Assembly (NCBI GenBank): GCA_025454125.1
Contig: JALOPA010000229.1
Span: 1 to 7,167, forward strand
Direction of reading: 5' to 3'
Length of the DNA: 7,167 bases
Source: Thermodesulfobacteriota bacterium
GTDB taxonomy: Bacteria > Desulfobacterota > DSM-4660 > Desulfatiglandales > HGW-15
The notes beneath the pieces were generated by a model. The model was not told the DNA's origin and did not search any database. It worked only from the letters and a program-made list of their open reading frames with translations. Shown here in pieces: positions 1 to 6,827 of this stretch. The first letter of the stretch is position 1, and each line of letters begins with the position of its first letter. Made by a program: the position numbers and the translations under genes.

Positions 1-752
1 TCCTCTTCATTGAAAACCTCGAGGGTGAGGATTGGAGGTGAAGCGACCCAAGACCCGAGGTTGCCGAAGAGAAGGGCAAGCTCTGAGTCCTTCAGCGCTC
101 CCAGGTCTCGATGGTCTTTGCCTTCTCGAATGCCGTGGGCGTGGAAGACCCGGATCCTATCTTGATACGTCGCAAGATAAGCGTCAAGGGGATAGCCCTG
201 GAGAAGGACATGCCCGATATCCAAACAGACGGAGAGGTCAAATTCGCGGACAATCGGGTCAACCAAAGCAAAGGGATAGTCCAGCGTCTCCACGCAAAAA
301 AAACGGGATGGAACTCCGCTGCTGAGCAGTTCTGCCACTGATGCCTTGAGACTGTTTATCCATCCCGTCATGTTCTCCGAGGGGAGGGGACCTCTCCGGT
401 CCCCCTCAAAGTGCACGACATAGGCTGCCGGATTCAGAGGGGAGGTCAACCCCACAATGTGGAGCGCCTTTTTCACAGAACTGCGCCGCTCTTCCTCGTC
501 CACCGCCCCCAGCGAGAGGCCGAGGGGCAGATGAACCGTGTAGGTCAGGTTTCTGGAGCGGGCTATGGAATCAAGCTCGGCAACGGTTTTTTCATCAGGG
601 AGATTGGACTCATCGTCCGCTTCAAAAAGAACAAGTTCAACATCATCCACATAGGGAGCGAGGTATCTGACATTGGTGATCAGATCCGCCGGGATGATGT
701 AAGAGGTGGTTCCCAGGCGAAAGGGGAACCGGTTTTTCAGATTTCTCATCAT
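1..752 (-). CDS. cbiR: CbiR-family cobamide-remodelling phosphodiesterase (3' end beyond window)
   Basis: The first 250 residues are present; the C-terminus runs off the left edge. CbiR proteins are AP-endonuclease/xylose-isomerase-like TIM barrels that hydrolyse the nucleotide loop of cobamides in the cytoplasm, so that a different lower ligand can be installed. The N-terminus (FRLGTTSYIIPADL, residues 11-24, then DDVELVLFE, 36-44) is what I recognise as typical of this family. Candidate metal or catalytic residues fall at expected strand ends: H74 (VHLP), H114 (VVHFEG), E155 (CVETLD), D178 and H181 (CLDIGH), H204 and H206 (FHAHG), D213-H214, and E245 (LTLEVF). The start is the first of two consecutive ATG codons; an earlier ATG at 757 hits a stop after two codons. 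An AAAGGA stretch lies about 10 bases upstream. Only 25 bases separate it from the receptor gene, so it is probably co-transcribed and under the same riboswitch. The family call is from memory of sequence character; a generic sugar-phosphate isomerase/epimerase is the alternative, made less likely by the B12 context. Confidence 0.85.
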   Translation of the reverse strand, partial: MMRNLKNRFPFRLGTTSYIIPADLITNVRYLAPYVDDVELVLFEADDESNLPDEKTVAELDSIARSRNLTYTVHLPLGLSLGAVDEEERRSSVKKALHIVGLTSPLNPAAYVVHFEGDRRGPLPSENMTGWINSLKASVAELLSSGVPSRFFCVETLDYPFALVDPIVREFDLSVCLDIGHVLLQGYPLDAYLATYQDRIRVFHAHGIREGKDHRDLGALKDSELALLFGNLGSWVASPPILTLEVFNEE

Positions 753-777
753 AGCATGTTTTTCCTTTGAAGGACGG

Positions 778-2817
778 CTAGTAGCGAATCTCAATGCCTC
801 CCACCCAGGTTTTATCCGGTGAGGGGTACACGAAAGGCTGCTCAGGGGAACCGCCTATGACGCCATACTGTGCGTATTTCTGGTCCGTGAGGTTGTTGAC
901 TCCCAAAAAGCAATTGATCCATTTCCACCCGTACGAAAGCCTGAGGTCAACCGTGTAATAGCTCTCCAGCTTGGGGAACTGGTTGTTTTGGTCGCTGATG
1001 AAGAAGCTTGATCCCACGTAGTTGTAGACTGCAGTGAAAATCGCCCCTGGCACCACATCGTGAATTCGAAATCCGAGGTTAAACTTGTTTCTAGGCACAC
1101 CGGGAATGTCTTTGCCGTCGTACGGCTCCCCAACGAATACCGTCTTTTGGTAGGTGTAATTGCCGAAGAGGGTCAGGACCCCAAAGAGGTCTGCATTGCT
1201 GCCGACTTCCACCCCCTGGTGAAGGGTTTCCGGGTAATTGGAGTTTGTCCCAAAGAAAGGGACAGGGGTTGGGTCATAATAGATTTCATTCTTGAACTTT
1301 ACGCGGTACAGGGTCATATTGGCCTGGATCAGGGGGGTGAAAAAGTGCCGTATCCCCCAATCTACGTGAAAACCGGTTTGGGGCTTCAGGTCCGTGTTCA
1401 CCATCGGCTGTCCGGTGAACTGATCAAACTCGATGAGTTCATCCGTGGCTGGGAACCGGAAGCTCCGGTTCATACGTAAGAAGGTGTAGGATTGGCCGGT
1501 ATAGACGTAGTTGAGCCCTGCGACATAAGCGGGTTCGGACTCGCTTAGCGTTTCTGAAAGCGGAGGCGGGGGGACCGGGAAACCCGTGAGCGGAGTGTTG
1601 CTGAGGTCGTAGTGAACGCTTTCATAGCGGCCTCCCAGAGTCAAGAAGAGGTTGTCCAGAAGCGCAAACTCGTCGTTGAGGTATAGACCGACGGTGTCCT
1701 TCTGAACTTCTGCAGTGCCCGAAGGGGTAGGCGGGTTCCCGTAAGATGAATTGGTGCTTTGCCGGGACTGGTAAAGGTCAACGCCTCCGATGACCTTGTT
1801 CTGGCGCCCCATGAGATCTCCACTCAAAATATATCGCGGCGTAAAAGCCCACGTCTCTATGTCGCTGTTGGAGAGAAAAGTGCCGAAGGGGTCAACGTAT
1901 TTCCAGTCTGCCTCCCTGTCTCTGTAGGCGAGATCCGCGACAAGATTGCCGTAGGATCTAAAGTCAAACCCACCGCCCAGTTTCAAATAACCATCCGTCG
2001 TATTGGCTTCATTAAGTGGGTCTCTCGCCATTTTCGGGTTGGTATTAAATTGCTCCAAAGTGAGAGGGCCTGGAAGCCCCGTGTGGTCTGAATGATAATT
2101 CCCGCTGAGATTGAGGCTCACCGTGTCCGAAGGATCAAAGAGGATCTTCCCTCCTAGGTTCTTGCCTCGAAATTCATTGTTTTCCCGGTAACCGTCCGTG
2201 GACTGATAATTGCCGAACAAGGAAGCCGCAACCTTTCCAGACCCACCGCTGGCGGAGAAGACTCCATTGTTGTAACCATAACTGCCGAAGGTGCCACCCG
2301 CCGAAGCGGTCAACTGATCCGGCGGCGTCTTCGTGATGATGTTGATCACGCCGCCAGGTGCATTGTCCCCATAGAGCACGGTGCCGGTTCCCCGTACGAT
2401 TTCAATTCGCTGAACCTGATCAATTGGAATCTGCGCCCAATCGACTCCGCTAAGGTCGATCTCGTTCACCCTGCGTCCATCCACAAGTACCAGCGTGTTG
2501 GAGGGAGCCGACTCTCCAAAACCTCTAAGGTCAACTTGCGCTGTTTTGGGGTTCCCCAGGAGATTTCTCACAACGATTCCCTCTTGAAAGCGAAGCAATT
2601 CAGGAATGTTCTGCGCGTTTGAATTGGCAATGGCCTTATCATCGATCACCGTGACGTTGGCAGGGATTCTTTCAACCTTTTCCTCAGACCTGGTTCCGGT
2701 CACCACCACTTCCTCCATGGTGACAGGTGGAGTGGCCGGTTTCGTTTGTTCTTGTGCAGGGCTTTGTGAAGGCAGCGCAAACATCAGCACCAATAAAGCA
2801 AAGAGCCGCTTTTTCAT
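778..2817 (-). CDS. btuB: TonB-dependent outer-membrane receptor, probable cobamide (BtuB-type) transporter
   Basis: A complete 679-residue receptor. Residues 1-21 form a signal peptide (basic MKKR start, hydrophobic core, cleavage likely after SPA). A TonB box-like segment, MEEVVVT, lies at 34-40. The plug domain spans roughly 47-165, with the family hallmarks VDLRGFG (95-101), TLVLVDGRRV (108-117) and IEIVRGTGTVLYG followed by APGGVINIIT (138-162). The rest is a 22-strand-type barrel rich in alternating aromatic residues, with a C-terminal stretch VNNLTDQKYAQYG and a final strand ending in Tyr, as expected for outer-membrane assembly. The start is firm: AAGGAGG (2831-2825) sits 7 bases before the ATG. 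Such receptors import a ligand using energy from TonB-ExbB-ExbD. The cobamide substrate is inferred from the upstream cobalamin riboswitch and the downstream cbiR; the protein alone would only support a TonB receptor, and it is somewhat longer than E. coli BtuB (614 residues). Confidence 0.93.
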   Translation of the reverse strand: MKKRLFALLVLMFALPSQSPAQEQTKPATPPVTMEEVVVTGTRSEEKVERIPANVTVIDDKAIANSNAQNIPELLRFQEGIVVRNLLGNPKTAQVDLRGFGESAPSNTLVLVDGRRVNEIDLSGVDWAQIPIDQVQRIEIVRGTGTVLYGDNAPGGVINIITKTPPDQLTASAGGTFGSYGYNNGVFSASGGSGKVAASLFGNYQSTDGYRENNEFRGKNLGGKILFDPSDTVSLNLSGNYHSDHTGLPGPLTLEQFNTNPKMARDPLNEANTTDGYLKLGGGFDFRSYGNLVADLAYRDREADWKYVDPFGTFLSNSDIETWAFTPRYILSGDLMGRQNKVIGGVDLYQSRQSTNSSYGNPPTPSGTAEVQKDTVGLYLNDEFALLDNLFLTLGGRYESVHYDLSNTPLTGFPVPPPPLSETLSESEPAYVAGLNYVYTGQSYTFLRMNRSFRFPATDELIEFDQFTGQPMVNTDLKPQTGFHVDWGIRHFFTPLIQANMTLYRVKFKNEIYYDPTPVPFFGTNSNYPETLHQGVEVGSNADLFGVLTLFGNYTYQKTVFVGEPYDGKDIPGVPRNKFNLGFRIHDVVPGAIFTAVYNYVGSSFFISDQNNQFPKLESYYTVDLRLSYGWKWINCFLGVNNLTDQKYAQYGVIGGSPEQPFVYPSPDKTWVGGIEIRY

Positions 2818-2824
2818 CTCCCAT

Positions 2825-2831
2825 CCTCCTT
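2825..2831 (-). promoter_or_regulatory. Strong Shine-Dalgarno site of the TonB receptor gene
   Basis: On the minus strand this reads AAGGAGG, a full match to the anti-SD core, 7 bases before the receptor ATG at 2817. It lies in the 22-base gap after the stop codon of the 44-residue small gene, so the receptor has its own strong ribosome entry and does not depend on coupling. Confidence 0.8.
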
Positions 2832-2839
2832 TTTAGCTT

Positions 2840-2974
2840 TCAATTGATCCAGTTGCCTTTTGCCAATCTCTTGTTCAACCAGCGACTGTATTCCCTGCCA
2901 AAGCGAGGGTCCATGAACACCAGGATTTCCCCCAGGTACAAGAGTTCTTCCTTGATTCGCCAGTAAAGATGCAT
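2840..2974 (-). CDS. Unrecognised 44-residue small protein in the cobalamin-riboswitch operon
   Basis: The reading frame starts at ATG 2974 and ends at TGA 2842-2840. It begins MHLYWRIKEELLYLGEILV and ends LAKGNWIN. GGAG lies about 11 bases upstream, a slightly long but usable spacing. The frame sits between the riboswitch terminator and the receptor gene, so it would be transcribed only when the riboswitch allows read-through. I do not recognise the family. The first 20 residues alternate charged and hydrophobic positions and could form an amphipathic helix. The middle, MDPRFGREYSRWLNKRL, is basic and aromatic, and there are three Trp residues (5, 32, 42). No signal peptide, transmembrane span or metal-binding motif is visible. 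It could be a small accessory to cobamide uptake or a leader peptide for the receptor gene. The protein-like composition, start signals and tight placement argue that it is translated, but nothing here proves it. Confidence 0.6.
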   Translation of the reverse strand: MHLYWRIKEELLYLGEILVFMDPRFGREYSRWLNKRLAKGNWIN

Positions 2975-3005
2975 CGGTCGTTTCTCTCCTTTCGGGCGGT
3001 GCCTT

Positions 3006-3048
3006 AAACAAAAAAATCCCCGGACCGATCAAGCTCGATCCGGGGATT
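3006..3048 (-). terminator. Intrinsic terminator of the cobalamin riboswitch expression platform
   Basis: A perfect 10-bp stem pairs AATCCCCGGA with TCCGGGGATT (arms 3039-3048 and 3015-3024). On the minus strand it is followed directly by seven T, then G and TTT. It lies about 60 bases after the riboswitch aptamer and before the first gene, the normal position for a transcription-attenuation switch. On the plus strand the same hairpin is followed by TCCCTTTTTT, so it may also stop transcription coming from the other side. Confidence 0.88.
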
Positions 3049-3107
3049 TCCCTTTTTTATCCTCAAGATCTAACAGCAGCCCCTGACCTCGAAGGCTGTT
3101 GCAAAAC

Positions 3108-3294
3108 GTCCAGGCAGGTCTTCTGACTCCCTCGCCCTTTCAGCGGCCTTCCCATCCCGGAAGATCAGAACAGTGGCGCACAACGGCTGAAAGAGTTCCC
3201 CTGTCTCTGCAAGAGAGAGGAGAGAGGTTACAGCGGCGGGCCCGTCCCCGGTTTTAACGGGGTTCCCCTTTAAGCTCGGACAGAGCACCTGAAC
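3108..3294 (-). ncRNA. Cobalamin (AdoCbl) riboswitch aptamer
   Basis: Read on the minus strand, the conserved elements appear in the right order. They are AGGTGC (3290-3285), an AAAGGGGAACCCCG segment (P3 region, about 3273-3260), GGGACGGGCCCGCCGCTGTAA (3248-3228; the 5' part and CCGCTGTAA are the universally conserved piece), GCCACTG (3177-3171), GGGAAGGC, and the B12 box GAGTCAGAAGACCTGCC (3129-3113). The ends close a P1 helix, GTTCAGG with CCTGGAC, seven pairs including one G-U. The downstream intrinsic terminator indicates control by premature termination when cobalamin binds. It governs the small gene, the TonB receptor and cbiR. Whether it prefers adenosyl- or methyl/aquocobalamin cannot be told by eye. 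Confidence 0.95.
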
Positions 3295-3305
3295 AAAGTG
3301 CGTCG

Positions 3306-3335
3306 AGTTTTTCCCGAAAGGCCTGCAGAAGTCAA
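3306..3335 (-). promoter_or_regulatory. Possible sigma70-type promoter of the cobamide operon
   Basis: The minus strand has TTGACT (3335-3330), an 18-base spacer, then AAAACT (3311-3306), a weak -10 with three of six consensus matches. Initiation near 3299 would begin the RNA just before the first riboswitch helix at 3294, which is the main reason to consider it. The -35 is good and the -10 is poor. Confidence 0.38.
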
Positions 3336-3420: not shown

Positions 3421-3449
3421 TTGACTCCGGGTACGGAATCGCCTATACT
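3421..3449 (+). promoter_or_regulatory. Near-consensus sigma70-type promoter of the pilT module
   Basis: TTGACT (3421-3426) is separated by exactly 17 bases from TATACT (3444-3449), each matching five of six consensus bases. Transcription would start near 3456, leaving a leader of about 16 bases with GGAGG (3461-3465) six bases ahead of TTG 3472. The layout is self-consistent and makes the earlier ATG at 3451 an unlikely start, because it precedes the predicted transcript. Confidence 0.65.
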
Positions 3450-3460
3450 TATGGACACTT

Positions 3461-3465
3461 GGAGG
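3461..3465 (+). promoter_or_regulatory. Shine-Dalgarno site that selects the TTG start of pilT
   Basis: GGAGG with a 6-base spacer to TTG 3472, an optimal distance. The other possible starts, ATG 3451 and the ATG at 3298, have no comparable site, so this decides the start. Confidence 0.65.
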
Positions 3466-3471
3466 TTCCTC

Positions 3472-4530
3472 TTGGCGAAAATCGATGTCCTTCTCAACAT
3501 GATGATCGGCCACAAGGCCTCGGATCTCCACATCTCCGCGGGCGATCCGCCCATGCTCCGCATCAACGGCCGGCTTCAACGTCTCAAGTATCACGACCTT
3601 ACCCCTCAGGAAGTGGAAGTGCTTTTGTTCGAACTTCTTGAAGAAGACCAGGTCGCTCTCCTGCAAGAAAGAAAGGATATAGACTTCGCCTACGAGATGG
3701 CGGATCAGGCCCGGTTCCGGTCGAACGTCTTCATGGAGAGAAAGGGCTATGGAGGGTCCTTCCGGCTCATTCCCAATTCCATCAAAACGTTGCGAGAGCT
3801 GATGCTGCCGGAGTCGGTTCAGATTTTGAGCCGCCAGAGGGCAGGTCTGGTGCTGGTCACCGGCCCGACGGGTTCAGGCAAGTCCACCACCTTGGCGGCC
3901 ATGATCGACCTGATCAACAAAGAACAAACCTATCACATCATCACCCTCGAAGACCCCATTGAGTTCATTCACCCCAAGGGCAAGTGCCTCATCCACCAGC
4001 GGCAGATCGGTTTTCATGCGGAGAGCTTCGCCTCCGGCCTCCGGGCCGCGCTTCGAGAAGACCCGGACGTGATCCTGGTGGGCGAAATGAGAGACCTGGA
4101 AACGGTGCAGCTGGCCCTCACGGCCTCTGAAACAGGCTTGCTCGTGCTGGGAACCCTCCACACCTCAAGCGCCCACAAAACCGTGGACCGGGTCATTGAT
4201 GTCTTTCCCACGTTTCAGCAGGCCCAGATCAGGACCGTGCTGAGCGAGGCTCTGAGGGGGGTCGTGTCCCAGAGACTGCTCCGAAGAGCGGACGGCAGCG
4301 GCAGGATCGCGGCCGTGGAGGTGATGATCACCAACCAGGCCATTCAAAACCAGATCCGGGAAGGCAAAACCCACCAGATCCCCTCCGTGCTCCAGACCGG
4401 AAAGAATGCGGGCATGCAAACCATGGAAGACCACATCAGGGCGTTGGCCCAACAGGGAATCGCGGACCGCGAGGAGGCGGCCTCCTATCTGGATGAAAAG
4501 AGGCGGGGGCTCGGCGAGGAACCGCGATGA
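3472..4530 (+). CDS. pilT: Type IV pilus retraction ATPase, PilT family
   Basis: A 352-residue hexameric secretion-type ATPase that would sit at the inner-membrane base of type IV pili and depolymerise pilin for retraction or twitching. From the TTG start the protein begins MAKIDVLLNMMIGHKASDLHIS, the usual PilT N-terminus, and the length suits the family. Visible motifs are SAGDPPMLRINGRL (22-35) of the PAS-like N-domain, Walker A GPTGSGKST (131-139), the Asp box LEDPIEF (159-165), the Walker B region DPDVILVGEMRD (197-208), the His box HTSSAHKTVDR (230-240), and AIQNQIREGKTHQI (290-303), the counterpart of the AIRNLIRE motif important for retraction, followed by QTGKNAGMQTMED. The frame is open back to 3298, but the extra residues are low-complexity and unlike PilT. 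The next gene overlaps by ATGA, so translation is probably coupled. PilU is a less likely alternative. No pilin or assembly gene is nearby. Confidence 0.93.
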   Translation: MAKIDVLLNMMIGHKASDLHISAGDPPMLRINGRLQRLKYHDLTPQEVEVLLFELLEEDQVALLQERKDIDFAYEMADQARFRSNVFMERKGYGGSFRLIPNSIKTLRELMLPESVQILSRQRAGLVLVTGPTGSGKSTTLAAMIDLINKEQTYHIITLEDPIEFIHPKGKCLIHQRQIGFHAESFASGLRAALREDPDVILVGEMRDLETVQLALTASETGLLVLGTLHTSSAHKTVDRVIDVFPTFQQAQIRTVLSEALRGVVSQRLLRRADGSGRIAAVEVMITNQAIQNQIREGKTHQIPSVLQTGKNAGMQTMEDHIRALAQQGIADREEAASYLDEKRRGLGEEPR

Positions 4531-5249
4531 CCGATCTGGCCGCTCTCAAGTCCTATTTGATCGAGAAGGGAGGGCTCAGGCCTGAGCAGATCGCCCAGGC
4601 TGAAGACTACGCCCTGACGCGCAACATCTCGCTGGAAGAGGCCCTCGTCTTCCTGGAACTGATTGATTACAGCGTCCTGGGCAAACGCCTGGCTGACCTC
4701 TACGGGAGACCGTATGTCGCCCTTCTGGACAAAGAGCCTCAGAAGACCGCCAAAGCCAGGGTGTCCCTGAAGATGGCGGCCAAACTCAGAGTCTTTCCCG
4801 TCAAGTACGATTCCGAAAAGAACGTGCTGGCTCTGGCCGTCTCAAACCCAAAGGATTCGGGGCTTGCCGAAAAACTCAAAACCTTGTTTCACGGGACAAC
4901 GCGCCTGGCTTTTTGCGTGGCTTCGGCAGCGGAGATCGAAAAAGCCATTGACGTGTACTACAGGGGGATGAGTTACTCCATGAGCCAGGAGATCCATCTC
5001 CCCAAGGACTTCACCATTATTGCAGACGCTTCGTGCAGAAGGCTACGGGGACGTGACCTGGATCCAGTCCGCACTGGAACTGGAAACCGCTCTGGCCAAG
5101 GACGCTTTTCACCTCCTCCTGGCGAACGGCCGGGTCTTCCGGCCCAAAGGTCCTTGGTTGGATCACCTCGGAAAGGGAACTGTGCTTCCCAAGATCTCTT
5201 ACTACCACCTGGCGCCCATGCTGATGGGGCAGGAGTTTCCCTACCATGA
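4527..5249 (+). pseudogene. MshEN-domain N-terminal part of a frameshifted signalling protein
   Basis: Starts at an ATG overlapping the pilT stop (ATGA), with GAGGAA just upstream. Residues 1-145 match the MshEN/GspE N-terminal domain found on type II secretion and type IV pilus ATPases and known to bind c-di-GMP in MshE. Two helical repeats come first (LKSYLIEKGGLRPEQ and EEALVFLELIDYSVLGKRL), then LYGRPYVALLD, LRVFPVKYD, LALAVSNPKD and EIEKAIDVYY. The RLG and Gln positions of the canonical c-di-GMP motif are poorly kept, so ligand binding is uncertain. From about residue 160 (PKDFTIIAD) the first strand of a receiver domain appears to begin. Downstream the frame becomes an Arg/Pro/Gly-rich sequence to 5249, typical of reading out of frame, while sensible coding continues one base later in the frame of the next entry. 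I therefore read this as the 5' half of one gene broken near 5020-5035, by mutation or sequencing/assembly error. A standalone MshEN protein with a junk tail is the alternative. Confidence 0.72.
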
Positions 5250-6339
5250 GATGAGCAGCGCCCTCATCCACGCCGTGTCGTATCTCGTCAAAACCCGGTT
5301 TGCCCGCGAACAGGGTCTGCTTCAGGAGATCGTGACGCGCGCCCGCTACGGAAGACTGCTCGCTTCGCGGCTGGGGTTGGATCAGCGGCAGGTGGACGGC
5401 GTCGAGCTTGCAGCCTGGTGTTCCGGAGGCGGGCTGGGAGAAGACTTTTTGAAGCAGGTTCCCCTCCCCTACGGCCTGCAGGAGATCTTCTCCTCCGAAG
5501 ACAAAGAGCGAGGGGCGGCAAGAATGGAGGCGGGCATCCTCAGTCTGGTGGGCCGCTACCTGACGCTTCTGAAAGGCGACCCGGAAGGGACCAAGGATGT
5601 GCAGCGATTGCGAAAGGAGCTTCAGGGAACCCGATCCAGCTCTGAAACGGATACCATGATTGAGACCTTCCTCAAGGTGATCAAGGAGGAGGAACTCCTG
5701 GGCCGGGTCGGCGAAGGGTCCTCAGGCCGCATTCTGATCGTGGATCCGACGGAGTCTCCGGTTTCTCCCTGTGTCCTTCGATTGAACAACGAGGGCTACC
5801 AGGTGGAGGTGATCCAAAGAGCCAAAGACGCCCTCGGCAGAGCGGTGCAGGGAAAGGCTGATCTGATCCTCTCCGAACTCAATCTGGTGGACGCCAAGGG
5901 CCTTCAGCTCTGCCGGGCCATCAAGGGGAGGGAGGCCACGGCCGCGATCCCGTTCCTGTTCCTGACCTCAGACAGGGGCGAAGGGCTCCAGGCCGAATGC
6001 CTGGAGGCGGGGGCCGAGGAGTTCTTCCTCAAACCGCCGGACCTCGATGTCCTGTCGCTCAAGATTAAACGTCTCCTCAGCATGAAGCAGGCGGACACGA
6101 AGACCCGCGGGGTGCATGGATCGCTCAGCGAGATGAAGCCGGCCGACTTCCTCCAGACCCTCTCGGCGGCGGAAAAAAGCGTGGAGGTTCGCTTGGAACG
6201 GGCCAAAGAGCGGGGCAGCATTTTTATGCAAAAGGGCGAGGTGGTCCACTCGGCCACGGGCAGCCTGAGCGGTGAAGAGGCGTTCTATCGGCGGGTGGAC
6301 GAATCCCAGGCAGAGGGCGACATCGGAGAGGACGAGTGA
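5020..6339 (+). CDS. Pseudo-REC / degenerate HD-GYP / REC / PATAN (DUF4388) signalling protein, probably the 3' part of the 4527 gene
   Basis: The 439-residue frame opens at TTG 5020, with AAGGA 11 bases before it, but it starts inside a domain, so the TTG is probably not a native start. Domains in order: residues 2-60, the remainder of a receiver domain (LRAEGYGDVTW, HLLLANG) with the acceptor Asp apparently replaced by N36; residues 80-222, HD-GYP-like (ASRLGLDQRQVDGVELAAW, then RMEAGILSLVGRYLTLL and MIETFLKVIKEEE) but lacking the HD and GYP residues; residues 236-355, a second REC with LIVD at 239-242, acceptor position E286, T316 and K338-P339; residues 363-432, PATAN/DUF4388 (GSLSEMKPADFLQTLS, GSIFMQKGEVVHSATG, LSGEEAFYR). 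Catalysis seems lost throughout, which suggests a binding or scaffold role. REC-PATAN proteins are known to act on pilus motors in cyanobacteria, which fits the pilT neighbour. It overlaps the next gene by GTGA. Domain calls rest on pattern recognition. Confidence 0.82.
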   Translation: MQTLRAEGYGDVTWIQSALELETALAKDAFHLLLANGRVFRPKGPWLDHLGKGTVLPKISYYHLAPMLMGQEFPYHEMSSALIHAVSYLVKTRFAREQGLLQEIVTRARYGRLLASRLGLDQRQVDGVELAAWCSGGGLGEDFLKQVPLPYGLQEIFSSEDKERGAARMEAGILSLVGRYLTLLKGDPEGTKDVQRLRKELQGTRSSSETDTMIETFLKVIKEEELLGRVGEGSSGRILIVDPTESPVSPCVLRLNNEGYQVEVIQRAKDALGRAVQGKADLILSELNLVDAKGLQLCRAIKGREATAAIPFLFLTSDRGEGLQAECLEAGAEEFFLKPPDLDVLSLKIKRLLSMKQADTKTRGVHGSLSEMKPADFLQTLSAAEKSVEVRLERAKERGSIFMQKGEVVHSATGSLSGEEAFYRRVDESQAEGDIGEDE

Positions 6340-6827
6340 AGCTTCAGACGATCAGGAAGCAGGTGGAGGTGGTTCTTGAGGACGGAACGCGACTGGAAGG
6401 GTTTCTGTTCCTCTCGCCGGCCTCTGCCCTTCGGTGGGGAAAGGAGTCGATTGGAGAGCTTTTGAACGGAGACCGCAAGTCCCTGCCCATGGAACTGAAG
6501 ACGAAAGAAGTGGTGCTTCTGAACCGGAGCGCTATCGTGATGGCTTTTTCAAAGGAAGAGGAAGAAGAACCGGATTTGACGAACACCAAGAGAATCCCTG
6601 TCGAGGTCGTTCTCCGGTCAGGAGAAATCCTGAGGGGAGAGATTCACAACGATCTTCCCGAGACCCACTCCCGCCTGTCAGACTATCTCAATCGAACCGA
6701 CATCTTCTTTCACCTTCAAACGGGAGATACGGTCTGCTTCGTCTCGAACGGATTTGTGAGGCTCATCAAGCCGGCCGATCCAGAGGAGGCGCGCGCTTTC
6801 GACCATCCTGTCAGGCCGAACCCTTAG
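6336..6827 (+). CDS. Hypothetical protein with an internally duplicated beta-rich domain (DUF6812-like)
   Basis: A 163-residue protein starting at GTG 6336, overlapping the preceding stop by 4 bases, with GGAG 7 bases upstream; translational coupling is likely. Two similar units are visible. Unit A (about 9-72) opens QVEVVLEDGTRLEGFLF and contains GELLN. Unit B (about 88-146) opens PVEVVLRSGEILRGEI and contains HSRLSDYLNR, then a strand-rich VCFVSNGFVRLIK. They are joined by an acidic linker with EEEEE at 74-78. The RLSDYLN signature after a V-V-x-x-G-x-x-L-x-G strand pair is what I associate with the DUF6812 type of small domain, seen in several signalling and motility operons, but the name is from memory. 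There is no signal peptide or membrane span, so it is likely cytoplasmic. Its function is unknown; a role with the pilT module is inferred only from operon structure. Confidence 0.78.
   Translation: MKLQTIRKQVEVVLEDGTRLEGFLFLSPASALRWGKESIGELLNGDRKSLPMELKTKEVVLLNRSAIVMAFSKEEEEEPDLTNTKRIPVEVVLRSGEILRGEIHNDLPETHSRLSDYLNRTDIFFHLQTGDTVCFVSNGFVRLIKPADPEEARAFDHPVRPNP

What the first reader, a model, noticed from the sequence alone, without database searches (positions are those of the whole stretch)
3472..6827. PilT coupled to a MshEN/REC/HD-GYP-like/REC/PATAN protein and a duplicated small-domain protein: a candidate motor-control module
Three genes overlap by 4 bases each under one promoter and terminator, with no pilin or assembly genes. 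The middle product combines a domain usually fused to pilus ATPases (MshEN), domains of c-di-GMP and two-component signalling, and PATAN, which in cyanobacterial REC-PATAN proteins acts on pilus motors. This suggests a dedicated c-di-GMP or protein-responsive regulator of pilus retraction, with the 163-residue protein as third component. I know of no named system with this composition.
Basis: partly seen in the sequence, partly recalled or inferred. Interest (0 to 1): 0.7.

Follow-up and report, generated by a model that had tools for sequence, protein, structure and literature searches.

The report
Pilus retraction motor with two partners
A conserved set of three neighbouring genes couples an extra pilus-retraction motor to a large protein built of worn-out signalling domains and to a small two-barrel protein that resembles Hfq, which suggests a dedicated way of controlling that motor.

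Summary
The three-gene unit is real and conserved. In 16 other genomes with a close relative of the middle protein, PilT lies directly upstream in 14 of the 15 that could be tested, and the 163-residue gene is next downstream in 15 of 15. More distant middle proteins lie beside PilT in another, convergent layout (6 of 9). The small protein follows PilT without the middle gene in 14 of 24 further loci. The module PilTs form one clade, apart from the PilT and PilU that most of these genomes also carry.

But the known input sites are lost: MshEN c-di-GMP motifs (0 of 39), HD-GYP metal residues, both receiver aspartates (second receiver: Glu in 39 of 39). A c-di-GMP or phosphorelay sensor is unlikely; a scaffold for a specialised retraction motor fits better. 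The small protein is a duplicated barrel resembling Hfq, recalling cyanobacterial Hfq on PilB.

In the window the middle gene is broken by two deletions; intact relatives exist. Promoter and terminator are unsupported. Function is untested. New variant of a known kind.

The parts
3461..3465 (+). Shine-Dalgarno-like GGAGG for the TTG start of pilT
   Evidence: read from sequence
3472..4530 (+). pilT paralog (PilT/PilU family type 4a pilus ATPase), 352 aa; Walker A, Asp box, Walker B and the gamma-phosphate His of the His box intact; Leu at the position of the other His-box His
   Evidence: NCBIfam TIGR01420 463.4 bits over cut-off 319.1 (on 3451-4530); motif counts; clade in tree
4527..6339 (+). 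middle gene, broken in this record: frame shift near 5028 and an in-frame deletion near 6285 compared with intact 674-aa relatives
4701..4967 (+). MshEN domain (PF05157) without the c-di-GMP motifs
   Evidence: 45.2 bits, cut-off 23.1; motif test
5029..5229 (+). remaining part of the first, degenerate receiver (Asn at the phosphoacceptor place)
   Evidence: hhalign to receivers probability 95-96 in intact relatives; N236 in 27 of 27 and 3 of 3 further close relatives
5233..5715 (+). HD-GYP-like domain without the HD and GYP residues
   Evidence: hhalign probability 97.2, E 4e-11; 20 shuffles at most 2.5; not among the Pfam families listed
5716..6087 (+). second receiver; Glu at the phosphoacceptor place (codon 5875-5877)
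   Evidence: PF00072 56.2 bits, cut-off 30.2; Glu in 39 of 39
6106..6285 (+). PATAN (DUF4388), truncated in this record
   Evidence: PF14332 35.2 bits; full length in P0001, 67.5 bits
6336..6827 (+). 163-residue protein: two Sm/Hfq-like barrels in tandem (about residues 5-72 and 84-146); weak DUF6812 match
   Evidence: AlphaFold2 pLDDT 81.9, pTM 0.76; Hfq chains fill most rows of Foldseek and VIA lists, with modest scores; PF20660 25.7 bits, below its cut-off 27.1, in 28 of 28 relatives at E<=1

Best explanation
It is an accessory type IV pilus motor module: a specialised further member of the PilT family, made together with two cytoplasmic partner proteins that dock on it. Shown here: the three genes are kept together, the PilTs of the trios form one clade, and the PilT keeps its ATPase residues. 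Inferred: the middle protein is not a sensor any more but a scaffold or adaptor. Its MshEN, receiver, HD-GYP-like, receiver and PATAN parts keep their folds and surfaces but have lost ligand and phosphate sites, and the second receiver is held in a phosphate-like state by an invariant Glu. PATAN and MshEN parts bind the motor or the platform protein PilC, and so decide when or where this PilT engages the pilus base. The duplicated Sm-like protein binds the PilT ring, as cyanobacterial Hfq binds PilB, and either stabilises the ring or couples it to the scaffold.
For: Gene order pilT, middle, p163 on one strand in 13 other genomes: 8 of the 10 loci L001-L010, G022, G060, G096, G405, G408. Flanking genes differ between most loci; shared ones occur in the pairs L003/L004, L005/L006 and L007/L008. 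A second tier of middle proteins (9 of 395 genomes) lies beside PilT in convergent orientation in 6 of 9. p163 lies directly downstream of PilT without the middle gene in 14 of 24 further loci, and after PilT-PilU plus one gene in 2 more. PilT tree: 12 module PilTs one clade (99/100), sister (85/76, not a starred branch) to the 6 convergent-tier PilTs. Seven of the ten genomes G001-G010 have module PilT plus two further PilT-family genes of about 50% and 40% identity, adjacent to each other in six. PilB-like and PilQ-like matches in 19 of 19 genomes tested (above the curated cut-off in 8 and 15). Input sites lost. Precedents in papers: PATAN regulators interact with PilB1 and PilC, Hfq binds PilB and is needed for pili in cyanobacteria (PMC12288463, section 5 and passages).
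Against: No interaction, expression or motility data; complexes could not be predicted here. L003 keeps both partners without pilT beside them, and its genome has no module-type PilT in the search; compared with L004 the pilT interval and a further 0.8 kb upstream are absent, so the partners may also serve another motor. p163 has no PilT within about 6-8 kb (or to the contig end) in 8 of 24 loci outside the trio. The module is patchy: 7 of 46 genomes in one family, 2 of 51 in another, so it is dispensable. The gap from the middle gene to p163 is 172 nt in L001 and 404 nt in L002, so one transcript is not certain there. The Sm-like assignment rests on modest scores. The middle gene is broken in the window and interrupted by a stop in L001.
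Confidence: 0.6

Rival explanations
1. One reading: the middle protein senses c-di-GMP (MshEN or HD-GYP-like part) or a phosphoryl signal and passes it to PilT through PATAN.
For: The domains that usually sense these signals are present as folds, and HD-GYP proteins (PF13487) occur in 8 of 8 of the genomes tested, so c-di-GMP turnover is likely there.
Against: 0 of 39 middle proteins carry even the relaxed 24-residue MshEN motif (one row, L087, lacks its N-terminus), against 8 of 20 PilB-like proteins of the same genomes; the HD and GYP residues are gone; both receivers lack the Asp. A new binding site elsewhere is not excluded.
Confidence: 0.1
2. The PilT paralog does not retract the main type IV pilus but drives or gates another machine (a second pilus, a secretion or adhesion system), and the partners direct it there.
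For: The trio carries no pilin or assembly genes, seven of ten genomes G001-G010 have a further PilT and PilU and often several PilB-like ATPases; the His box has a clade-specific Leu (18 of 18). In L001 the next gene downstream, convergent, is a PilB/GspE-like ATPase.
Against: The sequence is within the PilT/PilU type 4a family (TIGR01420), and the flanking genes looked at share no other machine (nine proteins of eight loci).
Confidence: 0.2
3. The small Sm-like protein acts on RNA, as Hfq does, and regulates pilus genes after transcription; its link to PilT is regulatory only.
For: Hfq chains fill most rows of the fold lists; no Hfq (TIGR02383) was found in 10 of 10 genomes G001-G010, which are MAGs.
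Against: Two of three further trio genomes (G022, G060) and 8 of 10 genomes with a PilT-p163 pair have their own Hfq; the His of Hfq's Sm2 KH is not kept, though the first barrel often has a Lys there (alignment, read by eye); the partner beside it is a motor gene.
Confidence: 0.1
4. For this window only: the middle gene is a decaying pseudogene, so the module is being lost in this strain.
For: Two deletions in one gene, one of them frame-shifting; L001 has an interrupted middle gene and L003 lacks the pilT.
Against: Apart from the two gaps the pieces are 97% and about 96% identical to an intact relative with no further stop, and pilT and p163 are open; a metagenome assembly fault would look the same.
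Confidence: 0.4

Closest known systems
Cyanobacterial PATAN response regulators (PixE, PixG, LsiR) acting on PilB1/PilC
   Same: A PATAN domain in a cytoplasmic protein with a receiver, thought to set the activity of a pilus motor (passages of PMC7690835, and PMC12288463).
   Different: There PATAN is joined to a CheY-like receiver (phosphorylated in PixG) and the motor is PilB; here PATAN is C-terminal behind MshEN, two receivers without Asp and an HD-GYP-like part, and the linked motor is PilT.
Cyanobacterial Hfq-PilB-EbsA complex
   Same: An Sm/Hfq protein tied to a pilus motor ATPase (PMC12288463 section 5).
   Different: There a single-barrel Hfq on PilB; here a two-barrel protein with a helical insert in each barrel, linked to PilT, and probably not orthologous to Hfq (both occur in 8 of 10 genomes with the PilT-p163 pair that were tested).
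Extra PilT paralogs outside the pil cluster, such as Geobacter sulfurreducens PilT1-PilT3
   Same: A PilT paralog away from the pilus genes; pilT3 lies next to a gene with MshE similarity (passages of PMC5065972).
   Different: The Geobacter neighbour is described as an ATPase (mshE); the passages seen mention no middle protein or Sm-like partner. Orthology was not tested.
Myxococcus FrzS (pseudo-receiver) in polar pilus control
   Same: A receiver without critical phosphorylation residues that works as a binding domain in pilus control (passages of PMC11580455).
   Different: FrzS is receiver plus coiled coil and acts through SgmX on PilB localisation.

Membership tests
PilT/PilU family type 4a pilus ATPase | Family score over the curated cut-off | tested here: met
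   TIGR01420 463.4 bits, cut-off 319.1
PilT/PilU family type 4a pilus ATPase | Walker A, Asp box, Walker B Glu and gamma-phosphate His of the His box | tested here: met
   Kept in 12 of 12 module PilTs and 6 of 6 convergent-tier PilTs
PilT/PilU family type 4a pilus ATPase | Powers pilus retraction | not testable with these tools
   no experiment
MshEN c-di-GMP receptor | MshEN domain | tested here: met
   PF05157 in 27 of 27 at E<=1; window piece 45.2 bits over cut-off 23.1
MshEN c-di-GMP receptor | Two 24-residue RLG...Q motifs (passages of PMC5013675) | tested here: not met
   Strict and relaxed patterns 0 of 39; control: 8 of 20 PilB-like proteins with one or more, 3 of 20 with two
HD-GYP phosphodiesterase | Homology over the domain | tested here: met
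   hhalign probability 97.2 over 148 columns (39 rows); 96.2 with the 12 added rows alone; 20 shuffles at most 2.5, reversed 0.8. Pfam lists none; with only four HD-GYP sequences the probability was 9.7
HD-GYP phosphodiesterase | HD and GYP metal and catalytic residues | tested here: not met
   The place of HD holds other residues (mostly YS or LS) and the HDIGK and GYP stretches have no counterpart
Phosphorylatable receiver (two-component) | Phosphoacceptor Asp | tested here: not met
   REC1 Asn 30 of 30 close relatives, K/T/E in 9 of 9 distant ones (gapped there, so uncertain); REC2 Glu 39 of 39
PATAN | DUF4388 match | tested here: met
   27 of 27 at E<=1; window piece 35.2 bits over cut-off 25
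PATAN | Binding to PilB/PilC | not testable with these tools
   no experiment
Hfq/Sm-like proteins | Sm-like barrel fold | tested here: inconclusive
Hfq/Sm-like proteins | Member of the Hfq family (over cut-off) | tested here: not met
   No NCBIfam match at E<=0.1 for the window protein; Pfam Hfq 12.5 bits, cut-off 27; LSM 18.4, cut-off 23.4

The most novel reading that the evidence does not exclude
A general 'Sm-like clutch' of pilus retraction: three copies of the two-barrel protein form a six-barrel ring that stacks on the PilT hexamer, the counterpart on the retraction motor of Hfq on PilB. The middle protein is a fossil sensor, a scaffold built of signalling domains that have lost their signals and whose second receiver is locked by Glu, and it holds this clade of PilT in a permanently engaged or permanently parked state.
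Probability: 0.2. Interest if true: 0.78.

Novelty: new variant of a known kind. Interest (0 to 1): 0.6.

Why it matters
Partner proteins that are encoded with PilT and conserved with it are, as far as my searches show, little described. The trio gives a small, clonable set for testing how PilT is controlled, links the PATAN and Sm-like themes known from cyanobacterial PilB to PilT in another group of bacteria, and offers a natural experiment on how a signalling protein turns into a scaffold.

Tried and rejected
Searches that led nowhere: no genome is held for the window, so its own pilus genes could not be checked. Pfam on nine flanking proteins of eight loci shows no machine shared by all (PilB/GspE-like, PAS-rich kinases, DnaE, glycosyltransferase and others), and the neighbours of p163 looked at in four loci without PilT are unrelated. 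PDB sequence search with the p163 profile gave one match at E 0.27, taken as chance. VIA on the middle-protein model was filled by receivers only and says nothing on the other parts. A first HD-GYP comparison with four sequences was weak (probability 9.7); it became clear only with 32 more.

Considered and rejected: programmed frameshifting of the middle gene, because both gaps remove residues that the intact relatives have; two separate genes, for the same reason; the 'tier 3' middle-like proteins as module members, because in the 15 loci fetched (12 checked over up to about 6 kb, 3 over 1.5 kb; 8 further genomes had no locus fetched) none lies near PilT and they match only the second half; a shared catalytic defect of this PilT, because the gamma-phosphate His (P. 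aeruginosa H229, passages of PMC6858323) is kept and only the other His of the box is Leu.

Limits and rows dropped: the survey scored only 3 candidates per genome and that up to 9, so 6, 9 and 33 of 395 are lower bounds. L001's middle gene (interrupted) and L010's (cut) were left out of A3; the REC control profile excluded L001-L010; three of ten Hfq loci were not picked up by my pattern (7 used); PilT hits under 250 aa were left out of the tree; PilB control sequences were cut at the family match, so a first motif may be missed in some.
Full report
What is in the window. PilT belongs to the PilT/PilU type 4a family (TIGR01420 463.4 bits, cut-off 319.1). The TTG start is backed by GGAGG six bases upstream, and the frame of relatives agrees from 'AKID' on. 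The promoter match (3421-3449) is one where shuffled sequence gives 1.6, and no terminator after the third gene is supported. On the minus strand is an unrelated cobalamin gene pair (below).

The middle gene is broken here. A relative 97% identical over the first part and about 96% over the rest is an uninterrupted 674-residue protein (P0001); compared with it the window lacks about 107 nt near 5028 and about 105 nt near 6285. Of 67 hits, 43 are 668-678 aa with MshEN, receiver and PATAN (only the 7997 candidates sharing most words were scored). Whether this is decay or an assembly fault cannot be told from the window.

Is the trio conserved? A scan of 84,980 species genomes with the profile of the middle protein, by two peptide patterns and so not exhaustive, gave 79 distinct loci of 108 confirmed places; ten (L001-L010, MAGs labelled Deltaproteobacteria, Desulfosarcina, Desulfobacterales, Syntrophaceae or Proteobacteria) match over the whole protein or up to a contig end at 39-48% identity, the other 69 match mostly in the receiver region. 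With further genomes from three surveys there are 16 genomes with a close relative. PilT is directly upstream on the same strand in 14 of 15 (L010 starts inside the gene; L003 lacks it) and p163 is next downstream in 15 of 15 (G429 ends inside), with gaps of 172 nt in L001 and 404 nt in L002. L001's middle gene is interrupted by a stop. L003 against L004 shows conserved flanks, with the pilT interval and a further 0.8 kb upstream absent from L003, and its genome G003 shows no module-type PilT. Neighbouring genes otherwise differ, apart from genes shared by the pairs L003/L004, L005/L006 and L007/L008. In 395 genomes of the phylum at least 6 have this form (3 candidates scored per genome); in two families 7 of 46 and 2 of 51: patchy, so accessory.

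Independent linkage. Nine more genomes of the 395 carry a diverged middle protein (open frames of 685-733 aa, one cut by a contig end). In 6 of 9 a PilT (59-62% identical to the window's) lies next to it in convergent orientation; in 3 there is none in the 6-15 kb looked at; no p163 was found in these nine genomes. Two of the six are near-identical. p163 relatives were found in 33 of 395 genomes; 30 loci were fetched: 6 are trios, 14 have p163 directly downstream of PilT, 2 follow PilT-PilU and one more gene, 8 have no PilT within about 6-8 kb or to the contig end. So each partner is tied to PilT in a second arrangement. I did not run a shuffled-genome control; with about three PilT-family genes per genome I estimate chance proximity at well under 1%.

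Which PilT. In G001-G010, module PilTs are 72-76% identical to the window's in 8 genomes; 7 of these also carry a PilT at about 50% and a PilU-like gene at about 40%, adjacent to each other in 6. In a tree of 57 PilT-family proteins the 12 module PilTs form one clade (99/100) and the six convergent-tier PilTs another (100/99); their union is less sure (85/76). All 18 have Leu where 22 of 22 other PilT and PilU of these genomes have the first His of the His box (14 of 17 p163-linked PilTs have His); the His that contacts the gamma phosphate and the Walker B Glu are kept in 18 of 18 (role of that His: passages of PMC6858323). PilB-like and PilQ-like matches occur in 19 of 19 genomes tested, above curated cut-offs in 8 and 15.

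What the middle protein is. Pfam finds MshEN, one receiver and DUF4388 (PATAN) in 27 of 27. The first receiver is seen by profile comparison (probability 95-96; 5 shuffles at most 0.3) and the HD-GYP-like part likewise (97.2; 20 shuffles at most 2.5). But the known input sites are lost: the MshEN motifs (strict and relaxed forms from passages of PMC5013675) in 0 of 39, against 8 of 20 PilB-like proteins of the same genomes with at least one (a pattern that finds only 8 of 20 controls is a weak instrument alone, but the Gly of both motifs is also absent in the alignment, read by eye); the HD and GYP residues; Asp of REC1 (Asn in 30 of 30 close relatives, K/T/E in 9 distant ones, where the alignment is gapped); Asp of REC2, which is Glu in 39 of 39 although 9 of 9 distant ones have changed the Pro after the receiver's Lys (the Lys is kept in 7 of 9). 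Glu in that place can mimic the phosphorylated state (recalled). The model of the whole protein has good domains but no reliable arrangement (pLDDT 78.0, pTM 0.35).

Mechanism. The most likely reading is a specialised PilT with two docking partners. Precedents: in cyanobacteria PATAN regulators interact with PilB1 and PilC, and Hfq binds PilB and is needed for pili (PMC12288463 section 5 and passages; PMC7690835 passages); in Myxococcus the pseudo-receiver of FrzS is a binding domain in pilus control (PMC11580455 passages). From these I infer that the PATAN/MshEN scaffold and the Sm-like protein bind this PilT or PilC and set its engagement. Binding, stoichiometry and effect on retraction are not shown.

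Literature. Searches of open-access full text: DUF4388 with PilT, 0 papers; DUF6812, 0; MshEN with PATAN, 3 papers on cyanobacteria and light; PATAN with PilB and PilC, 9 (listing seen); two of PilT4, Geobacter, PilT3, 9 (listing seen), among them one where pilT3 stands beside an mshE-like ATPase gene (passages of PMC5065972). I saw no description of this trio in these; subscription papers and preprints are not covered.

Verdict.

Noticed in passing
window 3-3307, minus strand: A cobalamin riboswitch (3096-3307, Rfam 84.4 bits), a strong hairpin followed by a T run downstream of it (about 3010-3053; fold z -4.18), a TonB-dependent receptor (778-2817) and a CbiR cobamide-remodelling phosphodiesterase (3-794, NCBIfam 251 bits over 105): probably a cobamide uptake and remodelling operon under transcription attenuation.
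   Followed up: partly
L183, L184, L185: p163 follows two tandem PilT genes; in 3 of 3 pairs one PilT has lost the gamma-phosphate His of the His box (Q, Q, A) and the other the first His (Q, Q, I), as if the two shared one ring.
   Followed up: no
L003 about 7868-8060 against L004 4384-6479: The pilT interval and a further 0.8 kb upstream of it are absent from L003 while both flanks are syntenic; the two partner genes are kept. Loss, or an assembly fault.
   Followed up: partly
L178, L179: PilT, PilU, one more gene (a zinc-ribbon protein in the G088 locus, L122), p163: a further arrangement.
   Followed up: no
G001-G010: No Hfq (TIGR02383) found in 10 of 10 of these MAGs, while 2 of 3 further trio genomes and 8 of 10 genomes with a PilT-p163 pair have one; MAGs may be incomplete.
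   Followed up: no
L094, L095, L097-L106: A group of relatives (open frames of about 570-850 aa) matching the second half of the middle protein (HD-GYP-like, REC, PATAN) that is not near PilT.
   Followed up: no
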